Positions 1,369 to 49,734 of a DNA stretch of 64,000 nucleotides are shown piece by piece (positions within the stretch are counted from its first letter, which is position 1; every line of letters begins with the position of its first letter). The stretch covers positions 16,181,178 to 16,245,177 of the forward strand of contig NC_023758.2 in assembly GCF_000499845.2 (NCBI RefSeq), read 5' to 3'. The position numbers and the translations under genes were made by a program. The notes below the pieces were generated by a model. That model searched no databases and was not told the origin of the DNA. It saw only the letters and a program-made list of their open reading frames with translations. The DNA is from Phaseolus vulgaris (lineage: Eukaryota > Streptophyta > Magnoliopsida > Fabales > Fabaceae).

Positions 1369-1508
1369 GGCAGGATCAAACTCAAATCTAAAAAGAAAAA
1401 TGCACAAAGGATCAATATCAATTCAGAAAAATATATGACACCAAAGCAAGAAACAATCAAAGCAATAAAAGTACTACTAGAAGTAATGACAATTATGAAT
1501 AACATGAC
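1369..1508 (-). mobile_element. CRM-like leader fragment
   Basis: This reads as the reverse complement of the untranslated leader of the intact CRM-like element, at about 50040-50180, with only scattered differences. It is bounded on both sides by Tat-type LTR ends. It is therefore a scrap of an older CRM-like copy into which the Tat elements inserted. Confidence 0.75.
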
Positions 1509-2727
1509 TGTTCCGTCCGGTTGACCGGGACTTCGTGCGTGGCCTCAACCGTCAGCTAAGGACTCCTTCCCACTGATTGCCTGCGAATTCCTGCAAAAAA
1601 GAGGACAAAGAGGCGCCCTAGCGGCCGTTTGCACTCCGACGCTCAAGTCAGTCAGCAAGAAACACCAAAAAACTGTCCACCCACGTATCTGAGCACCGCG
1701 TATATGGCACTCTGGGGGGGTAAAAGAAACTGTGTATATGTGTGTGTGTTGTCCCCTTTAGGCAAAGATATTTTCTCTAGTCCCTTGTCCGTAGTCTCAA
1801 AGCTCGAGCAAGCCACTAGAGAGTTCTGGTGAATTTGCCAAAAGTTTCAACCCTTTTTCCGACATTCCCAGCGCTATTTAAACTGCCCCAGCATTTAAAG
1901 CGCCTTAAAGCGCTTTTACACTCAACGTAACGCACTCATTAAAGCGCTTAATTACGAAACGTAACGCATTTAAGACGTTGAAATGCTTGGGAGCCATAAT
2001 AGTACCTGAATGCTAAAAAGGGAAACTGTATTGAATATCTTTAATTACCTGGCACCTGATTGAGGGTGTTTCTATTCCGGCATTGCTGTCATACACGTGG
2101 AGGGCCTCACGACGCCTTGACCCATCTGGGGCGTTTCTGCCCATCTGGGGACGTTTCTGCGTGTGGGTCCTCCTGCTTGGAGTGCTACTGCGCTAGGGGT
2201 GGCTTTTTGGGTGCCAACTCATGCCCCCAAGTATCTAGCCACTTACTCTGAGAGCGTATCTGCCTTCCTCTCACACCCTGCACCGGTTATCCTGGGCGTG
2301 ACCTTCCTCTTGGGTCGTATCTGTCCCGAAGGCGTCTCTGGGGCGGCAGGGGTACTTCGCGAGTCAGGCTGCCCTTTACTGGTACTATCACTATGGCCTT
2401 GGAGCCACCTTTTTCTTCTCTTTATCACTTTCCCGAGATATCGGGACCTGAGGCTTTCCCACGACGTCGCTCCCTCATGGTCTTTCCTACCCATGGGTAT
2501 CGGGGAACCACACCGTGATTGCCTTGCTTTTACACTGTTTAATCTGGCGACGCCCTCACCTGGGCGACGCCTTCACCTAGGCGACACCTTCACCTAGGCG
2601 ACGCCTTCGCCTAGGCGACGCCTCCTCTTGGCGTCTCTTCATCTGGGCGACACCTCGAGCTGACTTCGACTTTCCAGTCGTTGACTTTGACCTTGACTTA
2701 GTCAACGCCCTGATACGGGACGGTACA
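1509..2727 (-). mobile_element. Tat family A LTR, inverted (left arm of Tat-1)
   Basis: The plus strand reads TGTTCCGTCCGG...GGGACGGTACA, which is the reverse complement of a full family A LTR. At 2728-2743 it continues into CAAGCCCCCCAGTCTT, the reverse complement of the polypurine tract, so it is a 3' LTR of minus sense. The neighbouring pol (5165-8077) has plus sense, so this LTR does not belong to that pol in a normal element. A 17-bp repeat array (2546-2622) has the same four full units plus a part-unit as the LTR at 15021. Confidence 0.9.
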
Positions 2728-3215
2728 CAAGCCCCCCAGTCTTAAACCGAAGACTTGTCTTCAGCGCAAGACTAAAGCCTTGCCCCCGCCATCCACGTGC
2801 CTTCCTGATGACGTGCCATTCTCTGCTGACTCAGCAAATTTTTGAATTACTGACGCGACATTATCTGAACCACAGGGGTATTCTTAATGACCGATTGGAC
2901 ATTCCCTGCAATGGGGATGATTACGCCTTCTGGGCTACCCTTTATCTCGCGCCACGTGGCCCATCGCGTGGCCCTCCTTTAGAGACCTTTGCGCTTCCCC
3001 TGGGCAATCGACCTTCTGACGCGTGGCCCGATCCTGCGGCCCTTAGTTAGCGCCTCTTGGGTTACGAAATGTAACGTTTAAGTTACCCCAAACCCCGCGC
3101 TCACTCTACTGTTACATTCATTCACTCTGCAATTCCGCACTGTTCATCGCCTTCAAAACCCCTTTCTCTGCAATCGCGATTCTCTCCTTCCTGCGCTCTC
3201 CTACTGCCTCCAAAG

Positions 3216-3618
3216 GTACGGTTTTTCCCTCCTTGATGATTCTCTTTACTGTATGAACTGCCTGGGACTGTCCATATTACCGCATTTCTCTGGATGTTGC
3301 TTGTATGCTTCGTTATTTCCTCTTGTTTCCCTTCGTTCTTTTGCGGGTAGGGCGCTCCTAGGGTTCTTCCATTTTCCCCTTTCCTTCTCTCCAAACCCCT
3401 TTTCTCTGAACCCTTTCTTTCTCTTTTGATCTTCAGCATTGGTTTGATGGCAAAAACCAAGACCCACCGCGCCTCCCCCGCTCCCCAAGTCTCATTATAA
3501 GGGCGAATATGACTGGGCCCCCTACGAACTTCTGGACGAATGTTCCCTCCTGAACTCCGTTGAGGACGTGGAGGCCCACAGGGGGACCCTGCCCTCTATA
3601 ACTTTAATGCTTTCCACA
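3216..3618 (+). pseudogene. ORF A 5' fragment (leader intron plus start of exon 1)
   Basis: This is the copy of ORF A carried in the inverted arm. A leader intron can be read from CAAAG|GTACGG (donor at 3216) to CTTCAG| (acceptor ending 3436), followed by an ATG at 3447. The coding part matches the ORF A exon 1 start at 14300 (MAKTKT... and YDWAP-like residues). It has a one-base insertion near the start that breaks the frame. Homology ends at 3618, so only the first 57 or so codons are represented. It is not functional; it shows the leader intron in a third copy. Confidence 0.75.
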
Positions 3619-5164: not shown

Positions 5165-8077
5165 ATGCTGCCCAGCATCGACGCCCTAGTGGACAGCGCG
5201 TCTGGCAGCAAAGTGTTAAGCTTCCTGGACGCCTTCTCAGGGTATAACCAAATCAAGATGCACCCCAGGGACGAGAGCAAGACTGCTTTCATGACTGAAA
5301 CATGCAGTTATTGCTATAAGGTGATGCCCTTCGGGCTCAAAAATGCGGGCGCCACGTACCAGAGGTTAATGGACAAGGTCCTGGCGCCAATGCTCGGGAG
5401 GAACGTATACGCCTACGTAGACGACATGGTGGTGGCGTCGCAGAACAGGGTGCAGCACATGGCAGACTTGGAGGAATTGTTCAACACAATATCCAAATAC
5501 CGCCTCAAGTTGAACCCCGAGAAGTGTGTTTTTGGGGTAGAGGCCGGTAAATTCTTGGGTTTTCTGCTCACCGAGAGGGGGATAGAGGCGAACCCCGACA
5601 AATGTGCGGCTATTATCGCCATGCGGAGTCCGACATCGGTAAAGGAGGTTCAACAGTTGACAGGGCGGATGGCGGCGCTCTCGAGGTTTGTTTCCGCCGG
5701 AGGAGAAAAGGGGCACCCGTACTTCCAGTGCCTCAAGAGAAACAGTCGCTTTGCATGGACTGAGGAATGCGAAGCGGCTTTCGTTAAACTGAAGGATTAC
5801 CTGGCGACGCCTCCGGTTCTCTGCAAACCGGTAACGGGCGTGCCCCTCCGTTTGTATTTTACTGTAACAGATAGGGCCATCAGTTCTGTGTTGGTACAAG
5901 AGCAGGACCAGAGTCAGAAGCCCATCTACTTTGTAAGCAAAGCCTTACAGGGAGCTGAGACAAGGTACCAGGCACTGGAGAAGGCGGCGCTGGCGGTAGT
6001 GTTCTCGGCTAGGAGGCTCCGTCATTACTTTCACAGTTTCACGGTGGTGGTAATGACCAACCTCCCCATACAGAAGGTGCTGCAGAAGCCCGATGTGGCA
6101 GGAAGAATGGTACGCTGGGCTGTGGAACTGTCAGAATTCGACATACAGTACGAGCCTAGAGGATCCATTAAAGGGCAGGTGTACGCGGATTTTGTAGCAG
6201 AACTTTCGCCCGGAGGTGAGCAAGAAGTGGAAGCGGGTTCACAGTGGCTGCTCTCGGTTGATGGTTCCTCAAACCAGCAAGGGAGTGGTGCGGGAATAGT
6301 GCTGGAAGGACCCGACGGCATACTGATCGAGCAGGCCTTGCGTTTTTCCTTCAAGGCAAGTAACAACCAAGCAGAATACGAAGCCCTGATTGCAGGAATG
6401 CTCTTGGCCAAGGAGATGGGCGCACAGAACCTCCTAGTGAAGAGCGACTCCCAGTTGATTACGGGGCAGGTGTCGGGTGAGTTCCAGGCGAAGGACCCCC
6501 AGATGGCGGCGTATCTAAAATACGTCCAGTTGTTGAAAGGGGCGTTCAACGCTCTTGAGTTAATACACGTCCCGAGGGAGCAGAATGCCAGAGCCGACCT
6601 ACTCGCAAAGCTGGCCAGCTCAGGCAAGGGGGGTAGACAGAGGACAGTGATCCAGGAGACCCTCAAAGCTCCGCGTCGATTCGTGGAGGACAACAGGGTG
6701 GACGTCCTCCAGATTTATGCATCAGGGGGAAGGCCGAGGAGTCATTCCTCATTAACCCAAGATACGCAGAGGGCGCCCCGCATCAATATATACGCGAGTG
6801 CGTCTGAGGAGGAGCAGTTGCAGGTTTGTGTCCTGTCCACGGGAGACACCTTGATGACAACCTATAAACGATACCTGGCGGATGGGGCCCTTCCAGTGGA
6901 CCCTGAAGAGGGTAAGAAAATCAAAAGGAACGCCGTAAGATATACTTTGGTGGATGGGGTGTTGTTCAGGCACGGCTTCACTCACCCTATCCTAACATGC
7001 GTCAGTGGCGATGAGTGCACCAGGATAATGGCGGAGCTACACGAAGGCATCTGCGGAAGCCATGTAGGAGGAAGATCCTTAGCCTCCAAGGTAATACGCG
7101 CAGGTTTCTTCTGGCCAACAGTGAAAGAGGATTGCGCACGGCACGCCCAGCGGTGTAGGCAATGCCAAAAGCCCGCCGACTGGCACAAGGCGCCGCCTGA
7201 AGAGTTGCGGTCCATATACAGCCCGTGGCCTTTCCACACATGGGGTATTGACATCCTGGGCCCTTTCCCACTGACAATCAGGCAGATGAAGTATCTGATC
7301 GTCGCCATCGAATACTTCACTAAGTGGATAGAGGCGGAGCCCGTGGCACAGATCAGGGCGCATAAGGTACAACATTTTGTGTGGAGAAACATCGTGTGTC
7401 GCTTTGGCGTACCTAGGCGCCTGATATCTGACAATGGGACCCAGTTCGCCAGTCAGCAGTTAAGAAATCTGTGCGCTGAAGTGGGAATCAAGCAAGTGTT
7501 CGCGTCGGTTGAACACCCCCAGACCAATGGACAAGTAGAGTCAGCAAACAGAGTTCTGCTGAGGGGGTTAAAAAGAAGGTTAGAGAAGGCCAAAGGGGCG
7601 TGGGCGGAAGAGGTGCCAAGGATTGTATGGGCATACCACACCACGCCCCAATCCTCTACTATGGAGACGCCTTTCAGTCTGGTGTACGGGTCGGACGCGA
7701 TGATTCCAGTAGAAATACACGAAAGCTCACCGCGTTTTCAAAACTTTGTGGTGGAGGAATCTAATGAGGAGAGGCGGGTAAACCTGGATCTGCTAGAAGA
7801 GGCCAGGGAAGAAGCTAGAATAAAAGCTGAAGCGATGAAGAGAAGAGTGGAGCGGCAATATAGCTCTAAAGTAAAGCCACGTCAGTTTCAGGTGGGCGAC
7901 CTGGTGATGAGGAAAGCTCACCCTTACGAGCTGGAGAATAAGCTGTCTCCCAAGTGGACCGGGCCCTTCAGAGTTACTGAGGCTAAGGGCAACGGTTCGT
8001 ACAACCTGAAGACTTTAGATGGAGGCCCTATCCCGCGCAGTTGGAATGCAGCCAACTTAAAATTTTATTTCAGTTGA
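5165..8077 (+). CDS. Tat-1 pol: RT, degenerate RNase H, second RNase H, integrase
   Basis: A 970-residue open frame of a Ty3/gypsy Tat-lineage polyprotein that would copy element RNA to DNA and integrate it. RT has YVDD at 84-87. The connection/RNase H region follows (about 225-330). Its expected last Asp (TDH-type site) is Asn299 (VMTNLP). A second, archaeal-like RNase H, typical of Tat, spans about 361-485 with a full acidic set: D366, E404, D428, D478. Integrase has the zinc site H626, H633, C664, C667 and catalytic D696, D756, E792 (last spacing 35). The frame ends FYFS-stop. The first part of RT lies upstream in another frame, so translation as a functional polyprotein is unlikely. The first ATG is an internal Met, not a natural start. 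Confidence 0.93.
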   Translation: MLPSIDALVDSASGSKVLSFLDAFSGYNQIKMHPRDESKTAFMTETCSYCYKVMPFGLKNAGATYQRLMDKVLAPMLGRNVYAYVDDMVVASQNRVQHMADLEELFNTISKYRLKLNPEKCVFGVEAGKFLGFLLTERGIEANPDKCAAIIAMRSPTSVKEVQQLTGRMAALSRFVSAGGEKGHPYFQCLKRNSRFAWTEECEAAFVKLKDYLATPPVLCKPVTGVPLRLYFTVTDRAISSVLVQEQDQSQKPIYFVSKALQGAETRYQALEKAALAVVFSARRLRHYFHSFTVVVMTNLPIQKVLQKPDVAGRMVRWAVELSEFDIQYEPRGSIKGQVYADFVAELSPGGEQEVEAGSQWLLSVDGSSNQQGSGAGIVLEGPDGILIEQALRFSFKASNNQAEYEALIAGMLLAKEMGAQNLLVKSDSQLITGQVSGEFQAKDPQMAAYLKYVQLLKGAFNALELIHVPREQNARADLLAKLASSGKGGRQRTVIQETLKAPRRFVEDNRVDVLQIYASGGRPRSHSSLTQDTQRAPRINIYASASEEEQLQVCVLSTGDTLMTTYKRYLADGALPVDPEEGKKIKRNAVRYTLVDGVLFRHGFTHPILTCVSGDECTRIMAELHEGICGSHVGGRSLASKVIRAGFFWPTVKEDCARHAQRCRQCQKPADWHKAPPEELRSIYSPWPFHTWGIDILGPFPLTIRQMKYLIVAIEYFTKWIEAEPVAQIRAHKVQHFVWRNIVCRFGVPRRLISDNGTQFASQQLRNLCAEVGIKQVFASVEHPQTNGQVESANRVLLRGLKRRLEKAKGAWAEEVPRIVWAYHTTPQSSTMETPFSLVYGSDAMIPVEIHESSPRFQNFVVEESNEERRVNLDLLEEAREEARIKAEAMKRRVERQYSSKVKPRQFQVGDLVMRKAHPYELENKLSPKWTGPFRVTEAKGNGSYNLKTLDGGPIPRSWNAANLKFYFS

Positions 8078-8476: not shown

Positions 8477-9442
8477 TCAGCGCTCATCAGAGTCATCACT
8501 GGAGGAAGGCGAAGCCTCTTTCCCAGCCCGCAGCGCTCGAGTAAGTCGTGTCCTCTTTTCTCGGCTTATTTTCGAACCTGCACAAAGGGAACAGATGTGT
8601 TAGAGACACAGTGAAGAAAGACAGGCACAGTTAGAAAGTAACGAAGGTCGAAGTTGCCTAAGGCAGTGGTTCTTACTTATGTACTTCTCAAGAGTCCTAG
8701 CGTTGAACTCCAAGCTGATCACCGTAGCGGAGTCAAAACCTCCCGCCTCAGCAAGAATCCGGCAAGCTATTTGATCACTTGGAGCCAGATTCTTGAGGGG
8801 TTTGGCTTTGAGGGCCTTTTCCTCTCTCACCCAGTACAGCGGAAACCCATCGAGGGCGTCGGGAACAAAATCAGTACAGCAGATCTTGAAGAACCGGCCT
8901 TTCCACCCCGTGAACGAGCTTTGGAAGGGTGTGAAGAGAACTCTTCCGGGAACATTGCTGAGAGTTACCCAGAGGTTGTGTCTTTGTCTCTTCACCTCAA
9001 AAAAGTGAAGAAAGAGGTCAACCGAGGGTGCACAACCCAGAAACCCAAAGAGGACATCGAAGGCTTTGACAAAGGCCCAGTTGTTGGGATATAACTGGGC
9101 TGGAGCCACGTTGATCTCCGTCAGCAGTTCCTTCTCGAACCGGGAGAAGGGTAAGCGCACCCCGATGGTCTTGAACACCACCTGGTAAAAGTAAAAGAAA
9201 GGGACCCCGTCGTTCGCTCGTCCTTCTCCACACATTGGCTCCCCCAGAGTGCAAGGGAGCACAGCGATGTCGTCATCGTGCCTCCTCGCGAAGGCCCGAT
9301 GGTCGTAAGAACACAACTCCCCTTTGTGTTCCCGTACGGCCCTGGTGGAGAGCAAGCATGAACACTCATCAAGAAGTTCGCCCGAGGCCCAAGGGTACAA
9401 GTCTTGGGGACGGACCCTGGAGGAAGCATCGTGAGAAGACAT
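8477..9442 (-). CDS. Tat-1 antisense ORF B, two exons, 288 aa (Transposase_28-like)
   Basis: A gene antisense to pol, intact if one intron is removed. Exon 1 is 9442-8677 (ATG at 9442). The donor reads ATAA|GTAAGAAC, the intron is 8676-8578 (99 bp), and the acceptor is TTTGTGCAG|GTTCG. Exon 2 is 8577-8477, ending TGA. Splicing is phase 1, giving about 288 residues. Exon 1 resembles the plant 'putative gypsy-type transposon' domain (Transposase_28, PF04195): 'FEKELLTEINVAPAQLYPN', 'LFLHFFEVK', 'GWKGRFFKI'. Exon 2 gives a short basic then Ser/Asp-rich tail. Function is unknown; the family name does not imply proven transposase activity. It is a paralogue of ORF A. Assignment of the intron rests on the matching site in three other copies. 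Confidence 0.8.
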
Positions 9443-10721
9443 TCTTTAACAAGATCAAGATGGCTGGAAATGCAAGAGTTGAGCGAGGGGAGCAGTTAGA
9501 ACAGCCCTTCGACAAAGAAGAAAGGGTGCAAGAAGAAAGAACGTAAGTAGGTTATGAAGAGTGAGAAAATGGTGAAGATAGTTTCAGAGCTTGAAGAGTT
9601 AAATAAAGCGGTTAGAGCGCCAAACGACGTGAATGGATGCACCGCACGATCGATACACGTGGCAGAAGATGAAAGGATGACTCTGGCACCACTGGTTTAA
9701 ATCAGAAAATGTCCCGTCAACAGAATGTCCAAGGGTACGATCCGCCGTCGAAAATGAGTCAGGGGCATAGCAGGAGTCAGGTCTTGATGAACTGACCAAA
9801 TGTCCCACAAACCATACAAGTAGCGCCACGTGGATCAGGTCAAATGACAGAAGGTCCCATCAGCTATACGAGGAGCGCCACGTGGATGGCACAGACAAAG
9901 CCTTGGGCTCTTTGCTGTTATCAAGTGTTGACCAAGGCAAGAGTTAAGGTCGATGACGAAGTAAAGGTGACGCCCGAGGCGTTGCCAGGAAAGACGTAAA
10001 GGGCGACGACAGACGAGAAGTCGCGGGCGTCGCCAACCCAAATACCGACTGGCGTTACCCCCCCGATACCCCCAGGTAGGAAAGACTGAGGAGGGAGAAG
10101 AAATCAGAGAAAAGCAAAGTTAGTTGCAGGCGTCGCCTCCCCGATACCCACAGGTAGGAAAGACCGTGGAGGGAGACGAGACCGTCAAACGCCAGCGAGT
10201 CACCGGCAAGGTGTTCCCCGATACCTATGGGCAGGAAAGACCATGGAGGGAACAAAAACCCCACAGCACTCAGCGTTTCAGACACCCGGGGACGATACGG
10301 TGCTGCGTTAGCAGGCCTCTCCTTAGGCGTGGGTGCCGAGTGTTAAAGGATCAAAGAAAGAGCTTTTCGGTATCAGAGACGTCCCGTGGACGATACGGCG
10401 CCACTTAGTGAGCCTCTCCATGGGCGTAAGGGTTGGCGAGCGACCTTACCCCATCATACCAAACCGTCCAACGAAGTGTGAGAAACGGGCAGAATACAGA
10501 TAAAATAATTGAACGTATGAAGGGAAAAGATGAGAACGAGATCGCATAGGCGGAATCGTATGTGAAAAAGAAATAATGACAACCATGCGAATGTCCCGAA
10601 TCAGTAACAAGAGTGTGGATAGTTCAAAGAATTACAAGTTTTGGCAGATGAAATTAAAAAGCGAAGGTAAAGAATGAAGAGTTAAGCTTGAAGAGGAAGG
10701 TGGCGGATGAGGGGCAGCAGT
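9443..10721 (-). promoter_or_regulatory. Spacer between ORF A end and ORF B start, with motif repeats
   Basis: No convincing gene. It must hold the ORF B promoter and leader. Three copies of a motif starting CCCCGATACC and continuing into AGGAAAGAC...GGAGGGA begin at 10061, 10139 and 10216 (spacing 78 and 77). The same motif lies in the family A LTR (about 12092-12129 and 15244-15281), in the same element orientation. GGCGTCGCC words are also present near 10026. Between 10440 and 10720 I see nothing recognisable. Confidence 0.6.
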
Positions 10722-11781
10722 TCAGTCGTTCAAATCCATGGGCACGACCTTCTCGTCGACTACGTGGTGTGTGGGGTCGCAGTTTGAAAGGTTGACGCCA
10801 GGATTCTAGCAGGACGCCTGGGACAGGGCCTCTTGGAACCCCTCCTCGAAGGTGCCCGCCATCTCCTGGATAAGGGACTTTTTCTCCTTCTCCAGCTCCT
10901 CAATGGCGGCGTCTCCAGAGGCCACCTGCTTCTACAGAGCCTCTTTCTCCACACGAAGCCGGCTAACCTCGACCTGCAGTTTGTCGTAGTCAACTCGGAG
11001 AAGGTCCATAGCTTTGGCCTGCGTGGCCATTTCCTCCTCCATCCGTTCCACCTTGGCAGTTTGTTCACAGCAACGGTCCTTCAGGTCCTTTTGAGTTTCC
11101 GCGTCTGCTTTGACCAATTCCTGAAGACCCGCTACCTGTACTTGGAGAGCAACTTCACGAGCGTAGAAGTCAGCCTGGAGCTCCAAGGCCTCTGCCAGTT
11201 TCCTCTCAGCTTCTGCCCTGGACTCTTGTGCTTGTTTCAGAGAGGAACAATAAGCCTCGTTCTGGCGTCCCAGGGCCTTCATCTCCTCCTCCAGGGTGGT
11301 TGCTTTCGTTTCCAAGGCCTGGAGAGTTTGAGTTTGCAAGACAGCGTTTCTGGCCTGGGAGCGCCATTCAAGAGCCACCGCCAAGAAGGCCCCCAAATAG
11401 AAAGGCATACCTTCCCTCCTATCAGTACCTTCTGGCATAGTCCCGCCACTGAAACCCCTCATCAGGTGCATGATTGGAGGGGGAATGGCAATGAAGTCAG
11501 GGGCGGCAGCGTCGGGAGCCGGGGAAGCGGCGGTTTCTGGCGGCGGCAGAGGAGGGGAAGATTCGGCACCTTCGCCCCTTTCCTCTTGAAGAATCATAGG
11601 AGGGAGTGAGGTTGCGCTTGGAGGGTTGTCCATGAAGGGGTTCCCTCCCGGCGGCGGCGTCTCTACCAGAAGAGGAACCCGCGCGGATTTTCTCCTCCTG
11701 AAGGGTGCCACGCCCTCTGATTCCTCATCATCTGACAGAATCTCCAAAACCCTTTTTCCTTTGTCGAGAGGGGTTGGAGCT

Positions 11782-13097
11782 TGTACCGTCCCGTATCAGG
11801 GCGTTGACTAAGTCAAGGTCAAAGTCAACGACTGGAAGGTCAAAGTCAGCTCAAGGTGTCGCCCAGGTGTAGGGACGCCAAGAGGAAGCGTCGCCAAGGC
11901 ACGACAAGGCGTCGCTAAGGCACGGCGTCGCCTAGGTGGAGGCGTCGCCTAGGTGGAGGCGTCGCCTAGGTGAAGGCGTCGCCTCAGTGAAGGCGTCGTC
12001 CAGGTGAAGGCGTCGCCTAGGTGAAGGCGTCGCCCAGGTGAGGGCGTCGCCAGATCGAACAGTGTAAAAGCGAGGCAATCACGGTGTGGTTCCCCGATAC
12101 CCATGGGTAGGAAAGACCATGGAGGGAGCGACGCCGTGTGAAAGCCTCAGGTCCCGATATCTCGGGAAAGTGATAAAGAGAAGGAAAAGGTGGCTTCAAG
12201 GCCATAGTGATAGTACCAGTGAAGGGCAGCCTGACTCGCGAAGTACCCCTGCCGCCCCAGAGACGCCTTCGGGACAGATACGACCCAAGAGGAAGGTCAC
12301 GCCCAAGATAACCGGGTGCAGGGTGTGAGAGGAAGGCAGATACGCTCTCAGAGTAAGTGGCTAGATACTTGGGGGCATGAGATGGCACCCAAAAAGCCAC
12401 CCCTAGCGCAGTAGCACTCCCAAGCAGGAGGACCCACACGTAGAAACGTCCCCAGATGGGCAGAAACGCCCCCAGATGGGGTCAAGGCGTCGTGAGGCCC
12501 TCCACGTGTATGACAGCAATGCCGGAATAGAAACACCCTCTAGTCAGGTGCCAGGTAATTAAAGATATTCAATACAGTTTCCCTTTTTGGCATTCAGGTA
12601 CTATTATGGCTCCCAAGCGTTTCAACGTCTTAAATGCGCTACGTTTCATAATTAAGCGCTTTAATGAGCGCGTTACGTTTGAGTTTAAAAGCGCTTTAAG
12701 GCGCTTTAAATGCTGGGGGCAGTTTAAATAGCGCTGAGAATGTCGGAAAAAGGGTTGGAACCTTTGGCAAATTTACGAGAAACTCTCTGGTTGCTTGCCC
12801 GTGCTTTAGGATTACGTACAAGTGACTGGAGAATATTTTTGCCTGAAGGGGACAACACACACACATATACACAGTTCTTTTACCACCCTTCAGAGTGCCA
12901 CACGCGGTGCTCAGATACGTGGGTGGACAGTTTTTGGTGTTTCTTGCTGGCTGACTTGAGCGTCGGAGTGCAAACGGCCGCTAGGGCGCCTCTTTGTCCT
13001 CTGTTTTGCAGGAAATTTGCAGGCATTCAGTGGGAAGGAATCCTTAGCTGACGATTGAGGCCACGCACGAAGACGTCCCGGTCAACCGGACGGAACA
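11782..13097 (+). mobile_element. Solo LTR, Tat family A (1316 bp), TSD GAGCT
   Basis: It runs from TGTACCGTCC to GACGGAACA, flanked by GAGCT at 11777-11781 and again at 13098-13102. There is no internal region. The perfect 5-bp duplication inside ORF A exon 2 proves insertion into an already existing Tat-1 copy. It was later reduced to a single LTR, presumably by LTR-LTR recombination. It is longer than the other family A LTRs, partly because it has more 17-bp units. Confidence 0.96.
11924..12051 (+). repeat. 17-bp minisatellite in LTR U3
   Basis: Seven full units of the type GGCGTCGCCTAGGTGAA plus a 9-bp part-unit, in exact 17-bp register. The LTR at 15021 has four full units at 15126-15202, and the inverted LTR has the same four at 2546-2622. 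Copy number therefore differs between family members and is rich in CpG and CNG sites. Confidence 0.9.
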
Positions 13098-14300
13098 GAG
13101 CTGGTGATGAGGCCGCAGCTAGGGGAACGGCGGCGATAGGCGGAGGAGAACTGGGAGTCGGGAGCACTTTGGAGCCAGGTGGAGACGCCGGAGATGGGCT
13201 AGAACAAGCTTCAGCGGTGACGGGAGGTGGCGGTGACGGAGCCGGTGGGAGAGCCGGATTGGCAGCAGGGCTGGAGGAGGCGCCTGCCTTGGCGGCACGA
13301 GCCTCCTTCAGTGCTTTCGCCAACATTATTCTTTTGGAAGTGCCCATCACCGATCCTACATCAAGACAGGCCAAACAACAAGGATTAGCACTGGAGCGGT
13401 TATGTGGATTCACAATACAGGAAGAGATGCGAAATGCAAGTAACATTGTGCAGTGAAAAACGGTAATGCAGATAACCATAGCAACTAATGCATCATAAAT
13501 CGCCAAGAACAGATACCGAAGTATGTAGAAAGCCCATGGGCATTGAATTCGTTCGCGATGAGCTTGGCGGTATCAAAGACTATTCCCAATCCCGCCAAGG
13601 CTTTGCATATATCCCGGTCAGGCGGGGCAAGTTCGTCCAGAGCCAAGGGCTTCATAGTTATGGGCTTGTCTGTCCAGTACAGGGGAAAGCCCTCTAGAAT
13701 AGTAGGATCGCGCTTGGTCGCGCGTACCTTGAAAAATTTCCCCTTCCAGCCTTTGAACGAATTCTGGAAGAGCGTCAGGATGATGCGCCCGGCGATGCCA
13801 GAAAAGCTCATCCAGAGACTTTTCCCTTGTTTCTTTACCTCGAAGAAGTGAAGAAAAACGTCCACAGAGGAGGGAACTCCTAGGTAGCCGCAGAGAATTT
13901 GGAACCCCCTCACGAAAGCCCAACTGTTGGGATGGAGTTGGGTGGGAGCAGTGTTTATCTCTGTCAATAGCTCTTTTTCGAAGGGAGTTAGGGGCAGACG
14001 CAGGCCCACCCTTTTTAACACCATCTGGTAGAGGAAGAAGAAAGCGCATCCCCCAGTATCCAGTGAGTCCGCGCAAACGGGTATCCCAGGTCGCACTCGG
14101 CTTACCAGGACTTGGGAGTCATGACTCTTGTGGAAAGCATTGAAGTTATAGAGGGCAGGGTCCCCCCTGTGGGCCTCCACGTCCTCAACGGAGTTCAGGA
14201 GGGAACATTCGTCCAGAAGTTCGTCGGGGGCCCAGTCATATTCGCCCTTATAATGAGACTTGGGGAGCGGGGGAGGCGCGGTGGTCTTGGTTTTTGCCAT

Positions 14301-15004
14301 CAACACCAATGCTGAAGATCAAAAGAGAAAGAAAGGGTTCAGAGAAAAGGGGTTTGGAGAGAAGAAAAGGGGAAAATGGAAGAACCCTAGGAGCGCCCTA
14401 CCCGCAAAAGAACGAAGGGAAACAAGAGGAATAACGAAGCATACAAGCAACATCCAGAGAAATGCGGTAATATGGACAGTCCCAGGCAGTTCATACAGTA
14501 AAGAGAATCATCAAGGAGGGAAAAACCATACCTTTGGAGGCAGTAGGAGAGCGCAGGAAGGAGAGAATCGCGATTGCAGAGAAAGGGGTTTTGAAGGCGA
14601 TGAACAGTGCGAAATTGCAGAGTGAATGAATGTAACAGTAAAGTGAGCGCGGGGTTTGGGGTAACTTAAACGTTACATTTCGTAACCCAAGAGGCGCTAA
14701 CTAAGGGCCGCAGGATCGGGCCACGCGTCAGAAGGTCGATTGCCCAGGGGAAGCGCAAAGGTCTCTAAAGGAGGGCCACGCGATGGGCCACGTGGCGTGC
14801 GATAAAGGGTAGCCCAAAAGGCGTAATCATCCCCATTGCAGGGAATGTCCAATCGGTCATTAAGAATACCCCTGTGGTTCAGATAATGTCGCGTCAGTAA
14901 TTCGAAAATTTGCTAAGTCAGCAGAGAATGACACGTCATCAGGAAGGCACGTGGATGGCGGGGGCAAGGCTTTAGTCTTTGCGCTGAAGACAAGTCTTCG
15001 GCTT
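14301..15004 (-). promoter_or_regulatory. ORF A leader, leader intron and presumed antisense promoter
   Basis: Between the polypurine tract and the ORF A ATG. A leader intron is readable at 14531-14312 (220 bp): CAAAG|GTATGG to CTTCAG|CATTGG. Matching introns are at 3216-3436 and 43839-44074. Upstream, towards 15004, the sequence is well conserved with the left arm. It contains no clear TATA box but has an AACGTTACATTTCGTAAC near-palindrome (about 14668-14688). The promoter position is an inference. Confidence 0.6.
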
Positions 15005-15020
15005 AAGACTGGGGGGCTTG
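15005..15020 (+). other. Polypurine tract of Tat-1
   Basis: AAGACTGGGGGGCTTG immediately precedes the LTR start at 15021. This position is where plus-strand DNA synthesis is primed. It shows that ORF A and ORF B lie upstream of the 3' LTR and antisense to the element. The same tract precedes the LTR of Tat-2 (43344-43359) and, inverted, that of the left arm (2728-2743). Confidence 0.8.
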
Positions 15021-16247
15021 TGTACCGTCCCGTATCAGGGCGTTGACTAAGTCAAGGTCAAAGTCAACGACTGGAAAGTCAAAGTCAGCTCGAGGTGTCG
15101 CCCAGATGTAGAGACGCCAAGAGGAGGCGTCGCCTAGGCAAAGGCGTCGCCTAGGTGAAGGCGTCGCCTAGGTGAAGGCGTCGCCCAGGTGAGGGCGTCG
15201 CCAGATTAAACAGTGTAAAAGCAAGGCAATCACGGTGTGGTTCCCCGATACCCATGGGTAGGAAAGACCATGGAGGGAGCGACGTCGTGGGAAAGCCTCA
15301 GGTCCCGATATCTCGGGAAAATGATAAAGAGAAGAAAAAGGTGGCTCCAAGGCCATAGTGATAGTACCAGTAAAGGGCAGCCTGACTCGCGAAATACCCC
15401 TGCCGCCCCAGAGACGCCTTCGGGACAGATACGACCCAAGAGGAAGGTCACGCCCAGGATAACCGGGTGCAGGGTGTGAGAGGAAGGCAGATACGCTCTC
15501 AGAGTAAGTGGCTAGATACTTGGGGGCATGAGTTGGCACCCAAAAAGCCACCCCTAGCACAGTAGCACTCCCAAGCAGGAGGACCCACACGCAGAAACGT
15601 CCCCAGATGGGCAGAAACGCCCCCAGATGGGGTCAAGGCGTCGTGAGGCCCTCCACGTGTATGACAGCAATGCCGGAATAGAAACACCCTCAAGTCAGGT
15701 GCCAGGTAATTAAAGATATTCAATACAGTTTCCCTTTTTAGCATTCAGGTACTATTATGGCTCCCAAGCGTTTCAACGTCTTAAATGCGTTACGTTTCGT
15801 AATTAAGCGCTTTAATGAGTACGTTACGTTTGAGTGTAAAAGCGCTTTAAGGCGCTTTAAATGCTGGGGCAGTTTAAATAGCGCTGGGAATGTCGGAAAA
15901 AGGGTTGGAACCTTGGGCAAATTGACGAGAAACTCTTTGGTTGCTTGCCCGTGCTTTAAGGTTACGTACAAGTGACCGGAGAAGATTTTTGCCTAAAGGA
16001 GACAGCACACACACATATACACAGTTTCTTTTACCACCCCCAGAGTGCCATACGCGGTGCTCAGATACGTGGGTGGACAGTTTTTTGGTGTTTCTTGCTG
16101 GCTGACTTGAGCGTCGGAGTGCAAACGGCCGCTAGGGCGCCTCTTTGTCCTCTTTTTTGCAGGAATTCGCAGGCAATCAGTGGGAAGGAGTCCTTAGCTG
16201 ACGGTTGAGGCCACGCACGAAGACGTCCCGGTCAACCGGACGGAACA
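15021..16247 (+). mobile_element. Tat-1 3' LTR, family A (1227 bp)
   Basis: It runs TGTACCGTCC to GACGGAACA. In order it holds a 17-bp array (15126-15202), the TACCCATGGGTA palindrome (about 15249-15260), a cluster of AAGCGCTT and CGTTACG palindromic words just upstream of the TATA-like TTTAAATAGCGC (about 15874-15886), then the conserved block CGGCCGCTAGGGCGCC and TTTTTTGCAGG. The right flank (TTATG) does not match the left flank of the inverted arm (ATGAC), so the pair of outer ends carries no TSD. Confidence 0.93.
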
Positions 16248-33048: not shown

Positions 33049-33965
33049 TATTAATACTATTCATATATCTAATTTCATTAATATTATTATTAATCATTAT
33101 AATAATGTTATTAATATTATTAAATTATTAATATTATTAAATATTAATAAATATTATTAATATGATTAAATATGATTAAATATGATTAATATTATTAATA
33201 TTATTAATATTATTAAATATTATTAATATTATTAAATATTGTTAATATTATTAAATATTACTAATATTATTAAATATTTTTAATATTATTACTATTATTA
33301 AATATTATTAATTTTATTGAATATTATTAATATTATTAATTTTATTAAATATTATTAATATTATTAAATATTATTAATTTTATTAAATATTATTAATATT
33401 ATTAAATATTATTAATTTTATTAAATATTATTAATTTTATTAAATATTATTAATATTACTAAATATTATTAATATTATTAAATATTATTAATATCATTAA
33501 ATATTATTAATATCATTAAATATTATTAATATAACAAATATTATTAATTATTATAATATAATTAAATATTATAATATTACTAAATATGATAATATTACTA
33601 AATATTGTAATATTACTAAAGATTGTAATATTACTAAATATTGTAATATTACTAAATATTGTAATATTACTAAATATTGTAATATTACTAAATATTGTAA
33701 TATTACTAAATATTATTAATATTATTAAACAATATTATTATTATTAATATTATTAAACAATATTATTATTAATAATATTATTAAACAATATTAATATTAT
33801 TAATATTATCAAATATTATTAATATTATCAAATATTATTAATATTATCAAATATTATTAATATTATCAAATATTATTAATATTATCAAATATTGTAATAC
33901 TATTAATGTTATTAAATTTTATTAATGTTATTAAATATTAATATTATCAAATATTATTATGTTAA
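33049..33965. repeat. (ATT/AAT)-rich degenerate microsatellite, about 0.9 kb
   Basis: Almost pure A/T in ATTATTAAT-type words, with an internal stretch near 33570-33720 where TTGTAATATTACTAAATA repeats. The words are self-complementary, so strong hairpins are expected. No coding potential. Confidence 0.95.
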
Positions 33966-34232
33966 TATTATTAAATTAGATATTTGTGTGAAATAGTTGG
34001 TAGATAATAGAGATCCGTGGGTAATAGTTCGTAGGTAATAGAGATCAATAGGTAATAATTAGTAGGTAATAAGATTCATAGTTAATAGTTGGTAAGTAAT
34101 GCTGAATTTACCCACGAATTCAGATTTGTAGGTAATATCTATACGTAATATTTGTAGGTAATGCTGAATTTGTCTACAAATTCAGATTCGTGGATAAAAA
34201 TCCATATATAATACTATTTTTTCTTTGTAGTG
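33966..34232 (-). mobile_element. CACTA-type terminal region
   Basis: The plus strand ends TTTTTTCTTTGTAGTG at 34232, the reverse of CACTACAAAGAAAAAA. The preceding 260 bases contain repeated GTAGGTAAT words and two ATGCTGAATTTA/TGTC...AATTCAGAT palindromic units (34102-34128, 34162-34188), like the subterminal repeats of CACTA elements. The other end was not found, so it may be truncated by the AT array. Confidence 0.5.
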
Positions 34233-38035: not shown

Positions 38036-38317
38036 GCTTTAATAAATATTATTAATATAATTTATATTATTAATATTATTCATAATATATATAACTATTA
38101 TTAATATAAATTATATTATTAATATTATTCATAATATATATAACTATTATTAATATCATTTATATTATTAATATTATTCATAATATAAATATTATAAATA
38201 TTATTAATATAATTTATATTGCTAATATTATTATACTATTAATATTATTAAATATAGTTAATATTATTAAATATAGTAAATATTATTAAATATAGTTAAT
38301 ATTATTAAATATAGTAA
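38036..38317. repeat. ATT-rich tandem array
   Basis: Degenerate ATTATTAATAT sequence with a longer unit of about 60 bp (…TTCATAATATATATAACTATT…) repeated three times. It ends directly at a Tat LTR start. Confidence 0.85.
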
Positions 38318-44089: not shown

Positions 44090-46379
44090 ATGGTGCGCTC
44101 GAAACCGAGGTCCAGTTCTCCCCCCAAGACCAACTACAAGGCCTTCTATAAATGGGCCTCTGACGATCTTTTAAGCGAATGCACCACCTTGACAACCTTC
44201 GAGGATGTGGAGAACCATCGGGGTGACCCTCATTTATACAACTTCAACGCCTTCTGCCCACATCTGTGTCTGCCCCGGCACACCGGGAGAACCTATTTTT
44301 GTGGATGACAGACCCAGGGGTAGGGCCCCCTTTTTCTTCATGTACCAAACTGTATTCAAACGCGTTGGTGTACGCCTTCCATTTACACCCTTCGAGAGGG
44401 AACTCCTCACAGAGATCAATACGGCCCCCGCCCAGCTACATCCTAATAGCTAGGCCTTTGTTCGGGCCTTTCAAATTCTATGTGGGTATCTAGGCGTTCT
44501 TCCTTCTGTGGACGTCTTTCTACATTTCTTCGAGGTGAAGAAGCAAGGGAAAAGCTTCTGGGTGAGCTTTTCCGGGATCGCTGGCAGGATCATCCTCTCC
44601 CTCTTCCAGAACTCGTACAAAGGCTGGAAAGGAAAATTCTTCAGGGTGTGCTGCGCCAAATAGGACCCCACAGCCTTGGATGACTTCCCCCTATACTGGA
44701 CAGAGCATCCCAAGCTGCTCAAGCCTAAGGCCCTGGATGAACTGTCTTCCGCTGATCGAGGGGTATGTGAGGCCTGGGGATTGTTTTTGACACGCTGAAG
44801 CTCATAGCATGTGAGTACAACGCGCACACGTTGTCCACCTATTTTGGTAGGGAGGCTTATTCCTTGTTGCCTTTTGTCCTTCCTTTCTTATCTCTCATTG
44901 CTGAGTGTTCATTTGTACTCTTTTTATTTCATTTACCTGCATGCCTTGTGGATCTGTATAACTGCATTGGCGGTGGGATTGGCATTCTGTGCTTTGTGTG
45001 TAACTGACGCCTTGTTCTTGGTCTGGCGTGGCCTTAACCTCTGTTCTTTGGTTTGTCTGAATGCAGGATCAGTGATGGATTCATCCAAGAGGATGGTCTT
45101 GGCGAGAGCACTGAAGGCTGCTCGCACCTCCAAGGCTGGCGCCTCCACCATCCCCACTGCTGACCCAAACCTCCCATTATCCTTGCCCTCACCAACACCA
45201 ACCACCACCGAAACTCCACTAGGCCCATCTTCACCACCCCCACGTAGCCCCCAAACACTTCAAACACCCAATTCACCTCCGCCCATCGCCGCAGTCCCAC
45301 TGGCTGTGGCCTCATCACCTGCTCCAGCCCCCCTTGGCAAAGGAAAAAGGGTGTTGGAAATCCTCTCCGATGACGAAGACTCTGACGGTGGGGTAGTCTT
45401 CAAGAGGAGAAAGGCTGCTAGGGTTCCCATCCTACCAGCAGCATCACCCCAAGGAGGGGATTCCTTCATGGACAATCCCCCTAGCGCCACCTTTCCCCAA
45501 CCCGCGATAGTCCAAGAGGAAAAAGGCGAAGGGGCCGAGTCTGCTCCATCTCCACCACCAGCAAAGGCTTCTGCTGTTCCTGCCTCTGTTTCTGCGGCCC
45601 CCGATCTCATTGCCATTCCTCCTCCCATCATGCATCTGATGAGAGGCTTCAACGGAGGATTGATGTCAGAAGGCTCTAACAGGAAAGAAGGAATGCCCTT
45701 CTACTTGGGAGCCTTCTTGGCCGTGGCCCTCGATTGGCGCGCCCAAGCTAGAAATGCCGCTTCAAACACACAAGCCCTCCAGGCCCTGAAAGAAAAAGTG
45801 GCCGCTCTGGAGGAGGAGAAGGAAGCTCTGGGACGCCAAAATGAGGCCTATCAAGCCTCTCTGAAGTTGGCCCAAGAGGCCAAAGAGGAGACTGACAGGC
45901 AACTGGGCGAAGCAATGGAATTTCAGGCTGACTTCTACGTCCGGGAAGTATCTCTCCAGGTTCAAATAACGGACCTCCAAGACATGGCTGAGGCCTCCGA
46001 AGAGCTTCAGAAGGACTTGGAGGATCAGTGCTATGGGCAGGCCGAAAGAATAGAGTGGATGGAGGAGGAGATGGCTACCCAGGCCAAGACGTTAGGCCTT
46101 CTCCAGGTTGACCACGACAAGCTGCAAACTGAGGTCAACAGGCTCCGAGTAGAGAAGGAGGCTCTGGAGAAGCAGGTGGCCTCCGGGGACTCTACCATCG
46201 AGGAGTTGGAGAAGGCCAAGAAGGCACTCATCGATGACATGGCCGGTACCTTCGAGGAGGGATTCAAGGAGGCTTTGGCCCAGGTCGCCTACGAGAACCC
46301 GGGGATCAATGTTTCTAATTGCGATCCCACCCACCATGTCGTCGACAGTCGTGTTGTGCCCCTCGAATTGGATGACTGA
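44090..46379 (+). pseudogene. Tat-2 antisense ORF A (Transposase_28-like plus coiled coil)
   Basis: Exon 1 spans 44090-44846 and carries 'KWASDDLLSECTTL', 'FERELLTEINTAPAQLHPN', 'DVFLHFFEVKKQGKSFW' and 'GWKGKFF' but needs frame changes (near 44255 and later) and has in-frame stops, so it is decayed. The donor is ATTTTG|GTAGGG, the intron is 44847-45066 (220 bp), and the acceptor is GAATGCAG|GATCAG. Exon 2 (45067-46379) is fully open: about 437 residues with a SSKRMVLARALKAAR start, a Pro/Ser/Thr-rich stretch, an acidic patch EILSDDEDSD, a basic KRRKAAR possibly a nuclear signal, 'PPPIMHLMRGF', and a coiled coil of roughly 170 residues. Donor, acceptor and phase equal those of Tat-1. The role of the protein is unknown. 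Confidence 0.8.
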
Positions 46380-47957
46380 AACGCCAACTTTCAGCCGCCA
46401 CCTTTACTTTTTGTGCTTTATATTCGTTCTTGCCGATCTTTGATAAACTTATAAATCTTTTGAACCATTTGCCCTCGTATAACGCTTGCATACTTCTGAG
46501 GCGTTGAGTGCTGTTTGGCAGATATTTTCACCTTCGTTCTTCACTTTTGTATGCTTCAATTGCTTTACCTGTACCTTTACCTGTTTCTTTCGCTGTGTTG
46601 GGTGATCCCGCCTCACTTCTAACGTGCACCTCAAACCTGTTCAGCCTTCGTATCTATGAGGCCTTCGCCTCGTGAAGGTGTTGGCCACTCCGCCCTTGCT
46701 GCAAACGCAAAAGTTGAGACCTACTCTGGGTCCTAAACACTTGGGACAAGGTCGCGCCTTAGTGCCCACGCCCATGGAGAGGCCTGTCTAACAGCACCGT
46801 ATCGTCCATGGAGTGTCTCAAACACCAAGGCGATCTGTCCCTTGATTCTGGGTGCTTGGCACCCACGCCTAAGGAGAGGCCTACCACAGCAGTGTCGTAT
46901 CGTCCTCAGGGTGTCTAGAAACGCCAAGCACTGGGAAGGCTCGAAGCCCCCCATGGGGTCGCTCCCTCCATGGTCTTCCTCTCCCATGGGTATCGGGGAG
47001 CACCCCTGCCGGTGGCTCACTTAGCTTCTAGCGATCTCGTCTCCCTCCACAGTCTTTCCTACCTGCAGGTATCGGGGAGGCGACGCCGTTACTTCTGGAG
47101 ACCTCGTCTCCCTCCACAGTCTTTCCTTCCTATGGGTATCGGGGAGGCGACGCCGTTACTTCTGGAGATCTCGTCTCCCTCCATAGTCTTTCCTTCCTGT
47201 GGGTATCGGGGAGGCGGCGCCGTTACTTCTGGAGACCTCATCTCCCTCCACAGTCTTTCCTTCCTGTGGGTATCGGGGAGGCGACGTCGTTACTTCTGGA
47301 GATCTCGTCTCCCTCCACAGTCTTTCCTTCCTGTGGGTATCGGGGAGGCGACGCTGTCGATGCCTCATATTGGCGACGCCTCCAGCGTTTTACACTGGCG
47401 ACGCCTCCAGCGTTTTACACTGGCGACGCCTTCAGCGTCTTGGCGATGCCTGGTGCGATCAACCTGTTGACTTGACCTTAGCTTCGACTCTGGTCGGCGC
47501 CTGGGCGTAGCAGAGAGCTTAAGGTCTCGCCTGCGCCATCCACGTGGCATTTCCCGTATGGCTGATGGGATGTGCCGTCACTTGACTTGACCCTGACATT
47601 TTCTGAGCTTCTGCCAAGATGCTCCCATTCTCGACGGCGCATCGTACCCTTGGGCATTCTGTCGACGCGACATTTTCTGAGTGTTAACCAGTGACGCCAG
47701 GATCATCCTCCCATCCTCTGACACGTGGCTCGATCGCACGGTGGTCCCATTTGCGTCACTTGGCGCTCCAACTACAATATTTAGATCTTCGAAATCTTGT
47801 ACTTGCGTACATCATCTCTGTGTTTTCGCGCCCTCCTTGCACCACTTACACAATGAGTTCCTTCTGCGTTCTTTCTAGTTGGCGTTTTTTCCCCCGCACT
47901 CCTAACGCGTTATTCTCCTTCGATCTCCCAGCTCCTTTGTTGATACTTTGCGCCAAC
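46380..47957 (+). promoter_or_regulatory. Tat-2 spacer between ORF A and ORF B
   Basis: Non-coding. It holds the same CTCCCTCCA...GGTATCGGGGA motif as the LTR, once near 46964-46999 and then in a regular array (47036-47365). GGCGACGCC words follow near 47385-47440. The last 200 bases before the ORF B ATG presumably include its promoter. Similar spacers lie at 9443-10721 and 38676-38950. Confidence 0.65.
47036..47365 (+). repeat. 67-bp tandem repeat, five copies
   Basis: CTCCCTCCAC/T occurs at 47041, 47108, 47175, 47242 and 47309, an exact 67-bp period. Each unit holds CAGTCTTTCC, a GTGGGTATCGGGGAGGCG core and GTTACTTCTGGAGA. The Tat-1 spacer has three looser copies at 77-78 bp spacing, so the array was amplified after the elements diverged. 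Confidence 0.93.
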
Positions 47958-48709
47958 ATGTCTTCCCATGCTCCTCCCCCTAGGGTTAACCCCAAGGACC
48001 TTTATGCATGGGCCTCGTGCGAGATCCTCGACGAATGCTCCAACTTACTCTCCATCAGGGCCATAAGGGAACACAAGGGGGATCTGTGCTCCTACGATCA
48101 TCGTGCCTTCGCAAAGAGGATGATGACGATATCACCGTGCTTCCTTGCACCTTAGGGGAGCCGGTGTGCGGAGACGAACGGGCCAACGATGGGGTCCCCT
48201 TCTTCTACTTCTACCAGGTGGTCTTCAAGAGCATCGGCGTGCGCCTGCCCTTCTCCAGGTTTGAGAGGGAACTACTGACAGAGATTAACGTTGCTCCAGC
48301 CCAGTTGTACCCTAACAGTTGGGCTTTCGTCAAAGCCTTCGGTGTACTCTTTGGCTTTCTGGGATGCGCACCCTCGGTTGACATCTTTCTTCACTTCTTC
48401 GAGGTGAAGAGGCAAAGGAACAACCTCTGGGTGACCCTCAGCAACGTTTGACCCTGGCGCCTTGATTAGCTTGGAGTACAATGCCGAAGCCTTGGAGAAG
48501 TATATATGTACGAGATATTATCTTAGAAGTTCCTGCCTTTCATCTTTACTAGGTCTTTACATGTCATGTTTCGTGGTGTCTTCACCATGCTTGCTTCCTT
48601 CGGTACAGGTTCGAAGATAAATCGGCAACAGAGGTCACAACTTACCCAGGCGCTGAGGGCTGAGAACAGAGCTTCGTCCTCCTCCCATCCAGACTCCGGA
48701 GGCCACTGA
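47958..48709 (+). pseudogene. Tat-2 antisense ORF B (Transposase_28-like), two exons, decayed
   Basis: Exon 1 starts with ATG at 47958 ('MSSHAPPPRVNPKDLYAWAS'). It loses frame at about 48118 and continues in another frame with 'FERELLTEINVAPAQLYPN' and 'DIFLHFFEVKRQ'. It then has a deletion of roughly 230 bases after 'LWVTLSNV' relative to Tat-1, resuming at 'ALISLEYNAEALEKY'. The donor is TATATAT|GTACGA (48508), the intron is 48508-48608 (101 bp), and the acceptor is CGGTACAG|GTTCG. Exon 2, 48609-48709, is open and ends TGA, with the same basic then Ser-rich tail as Tat-1 ORF B. Non-functional, but the intron site is conserved. Confidence 0.8.
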
Positions 48710-48745
48710 AAAGTGGTATGTTTGCACCTTTCGTATGAGCATAGG

Positions 48746-49732: not shown

Positions 49733-49734
49733 TG

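What the first reader, a model, noticed from the sequence alone, without database searches (positions are those of the whole stretch)
8477..14300. Pair of intron-bearing genes antisense to gag-pol in a Tat retrotransposon
Seen: pol is on the plus strand, but ORF B and ORF A between pol and the 3' LTR are on the minus strand. Each has a GT-AG intron after exon 1 in phase 1 (8578-8676 and 13356-13516). The Tat-2 copies show introns at the same points (48508-48608 and 44847-45066). Known: a sense intron would be lost when spliced RNA is reverse transcribed, while an antisense intron is not recognised in genomic RNA. Inference: the genes have long been expressed as spliced antisense messages from their own promoter, and the element keeps them for a reason. 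Extra antisense ORFs are known in some Tat elements; paired genes with conserved introns may be undescribed.
Basis: partly seen in the sequence, partly recalled or inferred. Interest (0 to 1): 0.88.

Follow-up and report, generated by a model that had tools for sequence, protein, structure and literature searches.

The report
Spliced antisense gene pair in retrotransposon
A family of jumping genes in a bean-like genome carries, on the strand opposite its replication genes, two related protein genes that keep the same splice sites in copy after copy and are under selection; antisense genes of this kind were known, but their introns, pairing and exon swapping seem undescribed.

Summary
Observation confirmed. 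Downstream of pol (+5165-8077) lie two related minus-strand genes, ORF B and ORF A, both with the Transposase_28 (TRP28) domain and each with a phase-1 GT-AG intron at the homologous codon; copy 2 has the same introns. Antisense TRP28 ORFs are a known hallmark of Retand elements (Vicient 2025) and were seen in common bean (Gao 2014). Added here: (1) a leader intron in ORF A; (2) in 40 copies fetched from the window's own genome (not a random sample) the ORF B intron keeps GT 40/40 and AG 40/40, with ORF A exon 1 beside it in 36/40; (3) dN/dS 0.125-0.167 for the main coding parts, with introns varying about as much as third codon positions; (4) 80 of 81 homologues that reach the junction carry a residue that a phase-1 GT donor imposes; (5) the A/B duplication is old; (6) two divergent ORF A exon-1 cassettes are exchanged, breakpoints at or near introns. 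Best reading: functional spliced accessory genes, probably nuclear regulators working like the spliced antisense genes of HTLV. No RNA data were within reach: splicing and expression are inferred. ORF B exon 2 alone is weakly supported. New variant of a known kind.

The parts
5165..8077 (+). pol ORF: RT, RNase H, second RNase H-like domain (RVT_3), integrase
   Evidence: Pfam matches in order
8677..9442 (-). ORF B exon 1, Transposase_28 (TRP28) domain
   Evidence: PF04195 E 2e-9; 138 scored places in own genome, a lower bound
8578..8676 (-). ORF B intron, GT-AG, phase 1, 99 nt
   Evidence: GT 40/40 and AG 40/40 in fetched copies
8477..8577 (-). ORF B exon 2: short basic and serine/acidic tail
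   Evidence: Frame and stop kept in 36/40 copies; dN/dS 0.595, bootstrap 0.196-1.568, so weak
9443..10000 (-). ORF B upstream region (putative promoter): three CACGTG, TATTTAA near -163
   Evidence: at least two CACGTG in 39/40 copies; no start site mapped
13517..14300 (-). ORF A exon 1, TRP28 domain
   Evidence: PF04195 E 5.5e-12; dN/dS 0.125 in 17 rows
13356..13516 (-). ORF A internal intron, GT-AG, phase 1, 161 nt
   Evidence: GT 16/16 and AG 16/16 in mapped type I copies; 15/15 type II copies
13098..13355 (-). ORF A exon 2, first part (Pro-rich linker), up to the solo LTR
   Evidence: dN/dS 0.508
11783..13097 (.). Solo LTR inserted in ORF A exon 2, 5-bp direct repeats at its edges
10932..11782 (-). 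ORF A exon 2, later part: acidic/KRRK motif and coiled-coil-like region; in this copy it ends at a stop not seen at that codon in 33 other rows
   Evidence: dN/dS 0.167 in 34 rows
14312..14531 (-).
   Evidence: GT 16/16 and CAG 16/16 in mapped type I copies
14532..15020 (-). ORF A upstream region (putative promoter) with two CACGTG, next to the polypurine tract
   Evidence: at least two CACGTG in 28/34 copies; no start site mapped
15021..16247 (+). 3' LTR of copy 1, TGTACC...GGAACA
44091..46380 (+). Copy 2 ORF A: exon 1 broken, intron 44847-45066, exon 2 45067-46380; leader intron about 43839-44074
47959..48710 (+). Copy 2 ORF B: exon 1 broken, intron 48508-48608, exon 2 48609-48710

Best explanation
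A Retand-type Ty3/gypsy element carries, between pol and the 3' LTR, a duplicated pair of accessory genes on the opposite strand. Each has its own upstream region and one homologous phase-1 intron; ORF A has a leader intron too. ORF A makes TRP28 domain, Pro-rich linker, acidic and KRRK motif, coiled coil; ORF B makes TRP28 plus a short basic tail. Shown on DNA: exons, conserved splice sites, selection on protein, old duplication, exchange of exon cassettes. Inferred: that antisense RNAs are made and spliced; that the introns last because the sense genomic RNA, the one reverse-transcribed, does not present them as introns; that the proteins act in the nucleus on the element's transcription or silencing, A as effector and B as short partner or antagonist.
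For: GT 40/40 and AG 40/40 for ORF B, spliced tail kept in 36/40. ORF A: GT, AG and leader ends 16/16 in mapped type I, donor and acceptor 15/15 in type II. dN/dS 0.125 and 0.167 in ORF A parts, which were not in the sampling query. Residue class of a phase-1 GT donor in 80 of 81 homologues. Separate old clades for A and B, which share the intron. pol opposite to ORF B in 8/8 loci. TRP28 and coiled coil in one chain in P0155 and in peanut P0229. In print: antisense TRP28 ORFs, own promoter and nuclear protein of maize gene23, spliced antisense regulators of HTLV.
Against: No RNA evidence. 13 of 81 homologues have the intron open in frame. Several NCBI-sourced bean proteins begin at the ATG in exon 2. 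ORF B exon 2 has dN/dS 0.595 with an interval that includes 1. Introns vary somewhat less than synonymous sites. Copies were ranked by similarity to ORF B exon 1 plus 25 intron codons. The function step rests on analogy.
Confidence: 0.7

Rival explanations
1. Separate antisense ORFs without splicing: the TRP28 ORF ends in the putative intron and the coiled-coil ORF of A starts at the ATG a few codons into exon 2.
For: NCBI-sourced bean proteins such as P0122 and P0127 start at that ATG; 59 of 81 homologue ORFs stop or run off in the intron.
Against: Would not explain kept GT and AG, the residue class at the junction (80/81), an intron at the same codon in both genes, or ORF B exon 2, which has no such ATG. 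P0224 joins the two sides.
Confidence: 0.15
2. Introns are optional: both a spliced and a retained, read-through protein are made, as in copies with open introns.
For: 13 of 81 homologues are open in frame, including P0155, one ORF of 733 residues.
Against: In the 40 fetched copies, and in the window, the unspliced ORF B frame stops after 25 codons or slightly fewer; open share near that expected from composition; the open introns diverge faster than the exons, 68.5% against 90.4%. Four of the 13 came from searches that favour long ORFs.
Confidence: 0.1
3. The antisense transcripts act as RNA (double-stranded RNA, small RNAs) and the proteins do not matter.
For: Suggested in print as a possible additional role (PMC7264820).
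Against: Constraint at the amino acid level, dN/dS 0.125-0.167, is not expected from an RNA-only role.
Confidence: 0.07
4. Relics: the genes are coding but selection comes only from hitch-hiking with related active elements, with no current role.
For: Window ORF A and both copy 2 genes are broken; four of 40 copies lack a recognised ORF A exon 1.
Against: Low dN/dS in close copies; the whole spliced ORF B frame is open in 34 of 40 copies (sample biased to intact exon 1).
Confidence: 0.08

Closest known systems
Antisense TRP28 ORFs of Retand elements (Vicient 2025, PMC11963269; main text seen in parts 1-3 of 5)
   Same: Same position between pol and 3' LTR, same strand, same domain PF04195, TRP28 in all but two of 63 clusters; some clusters also have antisense Smc-like ORFs.
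   Different: ORFs were called without splicing; the text has no 'intron' and no statement on paired TRP28 genes that I saw. My inference: some TRP28 and Smc ORFs are exons of one gene.
ORF2 of 15 Ty3-gypsy families of common bean, such as pvRetro13 (Gao 2014, PMC4093653; passages)
   Same: Antisense gene before the 3' LTR, probably the same host species, coiled-coil (SMC) similarity.
   Different: One extra ORF per family is described, no pair; 'intron' does not occur in the text. Gene finders that allow introns were used, so some models may be spliced.
gene23 of maize Grande (Gomez-Orte 2013, not held; known to me through PMC7264820)
   Same: Antisense accessory gene in the 3' internal region, own promoter, nuclear protein.
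   Different: Introns not mentioned in what I saw; homology not tested here.
Spliced antisense genes of HTLV (HBZ, APH; PMC10186651, passages)
   Same: Antisense, spliced, largely nuclear proteins that repress the sense promoter: the working model.
   Different: No homology claimed; promoter lies in the 3' LTR there; one gene, not a pair.

Membership tests
Retand lineage (Tat clade, Ty3/gypsy) | Second (archaeal-type) RNase H between RNase H and integrase | tested here: met
   RVT_3 at 365-484 between RT_RNaseH (227-325) and integrase (617-785); criterion from PMC6317226 passages, which Ogre shares
[quoted passage not shown]
   PF04195 in both ORFs; pol end 8077 to 3' LTR 15021, including a 1.3 kb solo LTR
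Retand lineage (Tat clade, Ty3/gypsy) | No chromodomain in pol | tested here: met
   No chromodomain among matches of the pol ORF at E up to 1
Retand lineage (Tat clade, Ty3/gypsy) | Primer binding site of bean Retand I: tRNA-Lys | tested here: inconclusive
   Copy 2 has TGGCGCCCACCGTGGGGC just inside its 5' LTR; pairing with tRNA-Lys is from recall; criterion from PMC13392006
Retand lineage (Tat clade, Ty3/gypsy) | RT groups with Retand in a tree | not tested
   No named reference RT set was used
Spliced antisense accessory gene of HTLV kind (way of working, not homology) | Gene antisense to pol near the 3' LTR, with conserved splice sites | tested here: met
   splicing itself not seen
Spliced antisense accessory gene of HTLV kind (way of working, not homology) | Promoter inside the 3' LTR | tested here: inconclusive
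   Promoter-like motifs lie between LTR edge and leader, but no start site was mapped
Spliced antisense accessory gene of HTLV kind (way of working, not homology) | Nuclear protein that represses the sense promoter | not testable with these tools
   Only motif hints

The most novel reading that the evidence does not exclude
The two antisense genes are a two-protein control system whose introns matter. Being antisense, the introns survive each cycle of reverse transcription, and they serve as joints at which whole protein modules (TRP28 exon, coiled-coil exon) are exchanged between elements. Full-length A and short B act as effector and modulator on the element's expression or on host silencing, and that conflict drives the cassette turnover: exon shuffling inside a retrotransposon.
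Probability: 0.22. Interest if true: 0.8.

Novelty: new variant of a known kind. Interest (0 to 1): 0.6.

Why it matters
Antisense TRP28 genes sit in nearly all the recently active Retand clusters of one survey, and Retand is reported to make up about 5-9% of common bean genomes (PMC13392006, passages), yet their job is unknown. If they are spliced, plain ORF surveys cut one gene in two, and the protein to test is TRP28 plus coiled coil. An intron at the homologous site in both genes shows how old the pair is and gives a simple RNA test. Exchange of exon cassettes suggests that these proteins evolve under pressure, as viral regulators do.

Tried and rejected
Idea that ORF A is a sense gene behind a 5' LTR of an inverted element: rejected, since the polypurine tract and LTR ends make 15021-16247 a 3' LTR in + and the look-alike at 1508-3618 is an inverted fragment.

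Idea that the introns are coding: see rivals.

Solved-structure search with the exon 1 alignment: 6 weak matches, best E 0.14, coiled-coil, ribosomal and other unrelated proteins. Viral contig scans with the TRP28 alignment (34 pattern stretches, none a relative) and with pol (none) found nothing. Search for precisely intron-less copies in the genome: sent nine times as a pattern, never answered. Place of gene models P0224 and P0183: not completed. Structure prediction of exon 1: sent 23 times, queue always full. Among the proteins held when one search ran, a text pattern found no B-type protein with a precise exon join; that is not a genome-wide test.

Literature: eight counted searches in open-access papers. 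No listed paper described introns in antisense Retand genes, but I opened only a few. Gomez-Orte 2013 is not held; Kejnovsky 2006 and Steinbauerova 2011 I did not look up.
Full report
What is there. pol lies on + at 5165-8077 with reverse transcriptase, RNase H, a second RNase H-like domain and integrase. Past it come two minus-strand genes, ORF B (9442-8477) and ORF A (14300 to about 10932), then a polypurine tract and the 3' LTR 15021-16247. Both first exons match Transposase_28 (PF04195) above the curated cut-off. A further intron was missed: the leader of ORF A reads AAAG|GTATGG...TTCAG at 14531-14312, and copy 2 matches. The remote homologues P0099 and P0046 have N-terminal extensions ending in Q just before the start region, and P0099 has the letters expected of the donor; this is my reading of protein letters.

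State of the copies. ORF B in the window is open. ORF A in the window is cut by a solo LTR (11783-13097) and ends at a stop not seen at that codon in 33 other rows. Both genes of copy 2 are broken in exon 1. 1508-3618 is an inverted 97% copy of 16247-14129.

Copies in the own genome. The window lies in a genome of 537.7 Mb in 467 contigs. Seven of its contig lengths equal those given for NCBI-sourced Phaseolus vulgaris proteins, so the host is very probably common bean (inference). ORF B exon 1 has 138 scored places, a lower bound, as only 138 of 12531 candidates were scored. I fetched 40 of them, mostly high-ranking. The query held 25 codons of the intron, so the sample favours intact exon 1 and the first part of the intron; the acceptor, exon 2 and ORF A were not in the query. 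In ORF B, GT is kept in 40 of 40 and AG in 40 of 40; the spliced tail keeps frame and stop in 36 of 40 (L019, L040, L044 shifted, L043 stopped); two others (L012, L027) have a stop in exon 1, so the whole spliced frame is open in 34 of 40. An ORF A exon 1 hit of more than 500 bases, in the same orientation, was found in 36 of 40, not in L012, L014, L022 and L040; only hits in that orientation were kept. In 30 of the 34 with a leader donor the distance to ORF B is 3685-3885 bases. Of 21 type I copies, 16 could be mapped over the whole stretch: GT 16/16, AG 16/16, leader intron GT 16/16 and CAG 16/16; L010, L018, L027, L044 and L046 were dropped as partial. All 15 type II copies show GT and AG; exon 1 is open in 12 of 15. 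The integrase end is on the strand opposite to ORF B in 8 of 8 loci, the window included; the other seven are copies that are also among the 40.

Selection. Mean pairwise differences in ORF B: exon 1 codon positions 1, 2, 3 0.0215, 0.0132, 0.0580; intron 0.0650; exon 2 0.0130, 0.0356, 0.0274. dN/dS: ORF A exon 1 0.125 (17 rows), ORF A exon 2 first part 0.508 (17 rows), later part 0.167 (34 rows), ORF B exon 1 0.141 (41 rows), ORF B exon 2 0.595 (39 rows). Bootstrap over codons: 0.076-0.192, 0.268-0.989, not run for the later part, 0.089-0.218, 0.196-1.568. The ORF B exon 1 figure is biased low by ranking on its protein. Introns are not faster than synonymous sites: A intron 0.0523 and leader 0.0775 against pS 0.0843 in exon 1, B intron 0.0650 against pS 0.0898. 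Between copies 1 and 2: dN/dS 0.069 for ORF B exon 1, 0.146 for ORF A exon 2, 0.48 for ORF B exon 2 (29 codons), not computable for ORF A exon 1 (dS saturated), 0.025 for integrase.

Homologues elsewhere. A search with spliced ORF B found 208 proteins, 120 listed. Of 124 rows (those 120 plus P0155, P0211, P0227, P0228), 81 reach the junction by my rule and 43 were dropped. In 80 of 81 the next residue is S, C or G, as a codon NGT requires; the next best position within ten residues has 49 of 79. After the junction 59 stop or run off, 9 pass the acceptor out of frame, 13 enter exon 2 in frame; four of the 13 came from searches favouring long ORFs. Composition predicts 24-33% open for introns of B length and 8-10% for the two A introns; 22 of 81 are open. 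In seven in-frame B copies the intron part is 68.5% identical, exon 1 90.4%, exon 2 76.3% (21 pairs; P0035 and P0049 left out). In a tree of 68 exon 1 proteins window ORF A sits in a clade of 16 (99/100) and ORF B in a clade of 43 (100/99), so the duplication is old. P0035 sits on the B side but has a long A-like exon 2, so short B tails look derived (inference). Equal contig length and source suggest that P0099 (A-type) and P0114 (B-type) share one contig of 4590 bases (not verified).

Gene models. Three NCBI-sourced bean proteins seem to join other sequence at the exon 2 acceptor: P0180, P0183 and the more distant P0224, which keeps an exon 1 end. Others, such as P0122, begin at the ATG in exon 2. 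Peanut P0229 has TRP28 and a coiled-coil-like region in one chain. What evidence supports these models I could not see.

Promoters and motifs. The upstream regions of A and B are clearly homologous only in copy 2 (z 19.6; other A-B pairings z 2.0, 3.7 and 3.3). The four regions have 2, 2, 3 and 2 CACGTG, shuffled means 0.04-0.26. At least two are present in 39 of 40 for B and 28 of 34 for A; as the copies are close relatives this is largely descent. TATA-like boxes were found for B but not for A. A motif like DKGKRVLEILSDDEDSDG..FKRRKAARVP is matched in 48 of 107 exon 2 proteins, many too short to hold it; calling it a SUMO-interaction motif plus nuclear signal is from recall.

Exon exchange. 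ORF A exon 1 comes in two forms about 67-68% identical in protein. In L034 against L037 the LTR and upstream part is 0.88-0.98 identical, the leader intron through exon 1 to the internal intron 0.55-0.76, and the rest 0.89-1.00. Finer profiles of three such pairs put the left change near the leader intron, with a gradual fall that begins upstream of its donor, and the right change in the last part of the internal intron. In L033 against L042 exon 1 is nearly identical and exon 2 is 0.80-0.87, with the change inside the intron; in two more pairs the change is at the end of the intron or the start of exon 2. The six pairs were picked to show this; no formal recombination test was run.

How it likely works. 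Shown: coding, constraint, splice sites, old pair, module exchange. From established knowledge: an antisense intron is not recognised in the sense genomic RNA and so is not lost in reverse transcription. By analogy: HTLV antisense genes are spliced and their products repress the sense promoter (passages); maize gene23 is antisense, nuclear and has its own promoter. I put spliced coding genes at about 0.85 and the nuclear regulator step at about 0.4.

Known or new. Vicient 2025 finds antisense TRP28 ORFs in all but two of 63 clusters and its text has no 'intron'. Gao 2014 reports an antisense ORF2 in 15 bean families (passages). The 2020 review asks for attention to antisense and spliced transcripts. 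The gene kind is known; the introns, leader intron, pair with a shared intron and exon exchange were not in what I could search and read.

Noticed in passing
L034/L037, L031/L021, L038/L016; L033/L042, L035/L020, L036/L034: ORF A exon 1 and exon 2 are exchanged separately between copies, with breakpoints at or near the introns.
   Followed up: partly
1508-3618 against 16247-14129: A 97% inverted copy of the 3' LTR, leader and start of ORF A sits at the left of copy 1, joined to gag-pol: a fragment of another copy or a rearrangement.
   Followed up: partly
48746-56514: A Ty3-type element with LTRs 99.5% identical over 987 bp and one long gag-pol ORF (1545 aa) sits between ORF B and the pol remnant of copy 2: a recent nested insertion.
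   Followed up: no
38318-40643: An RT fragment joined to the spacer that lies upstream of ORF B and then to LTR sequence: an internally deleted relative.
   Followed up: no
10051-10430, 46962-47357 and the LTRs: Repeats with a shared 'CTTTCCTACC...GGGTATCGGGG' theme occur in the spacer upstream of ORF B (a 67-bp array in copy 2) and in the LTR; the pair may have arisen by duplication of the element's 3' end (inference).
   Followed up: no
33049-33995 and 38037-38321: Two related repeat arrays with many direct and inverted self-matches.
   Followed up: no
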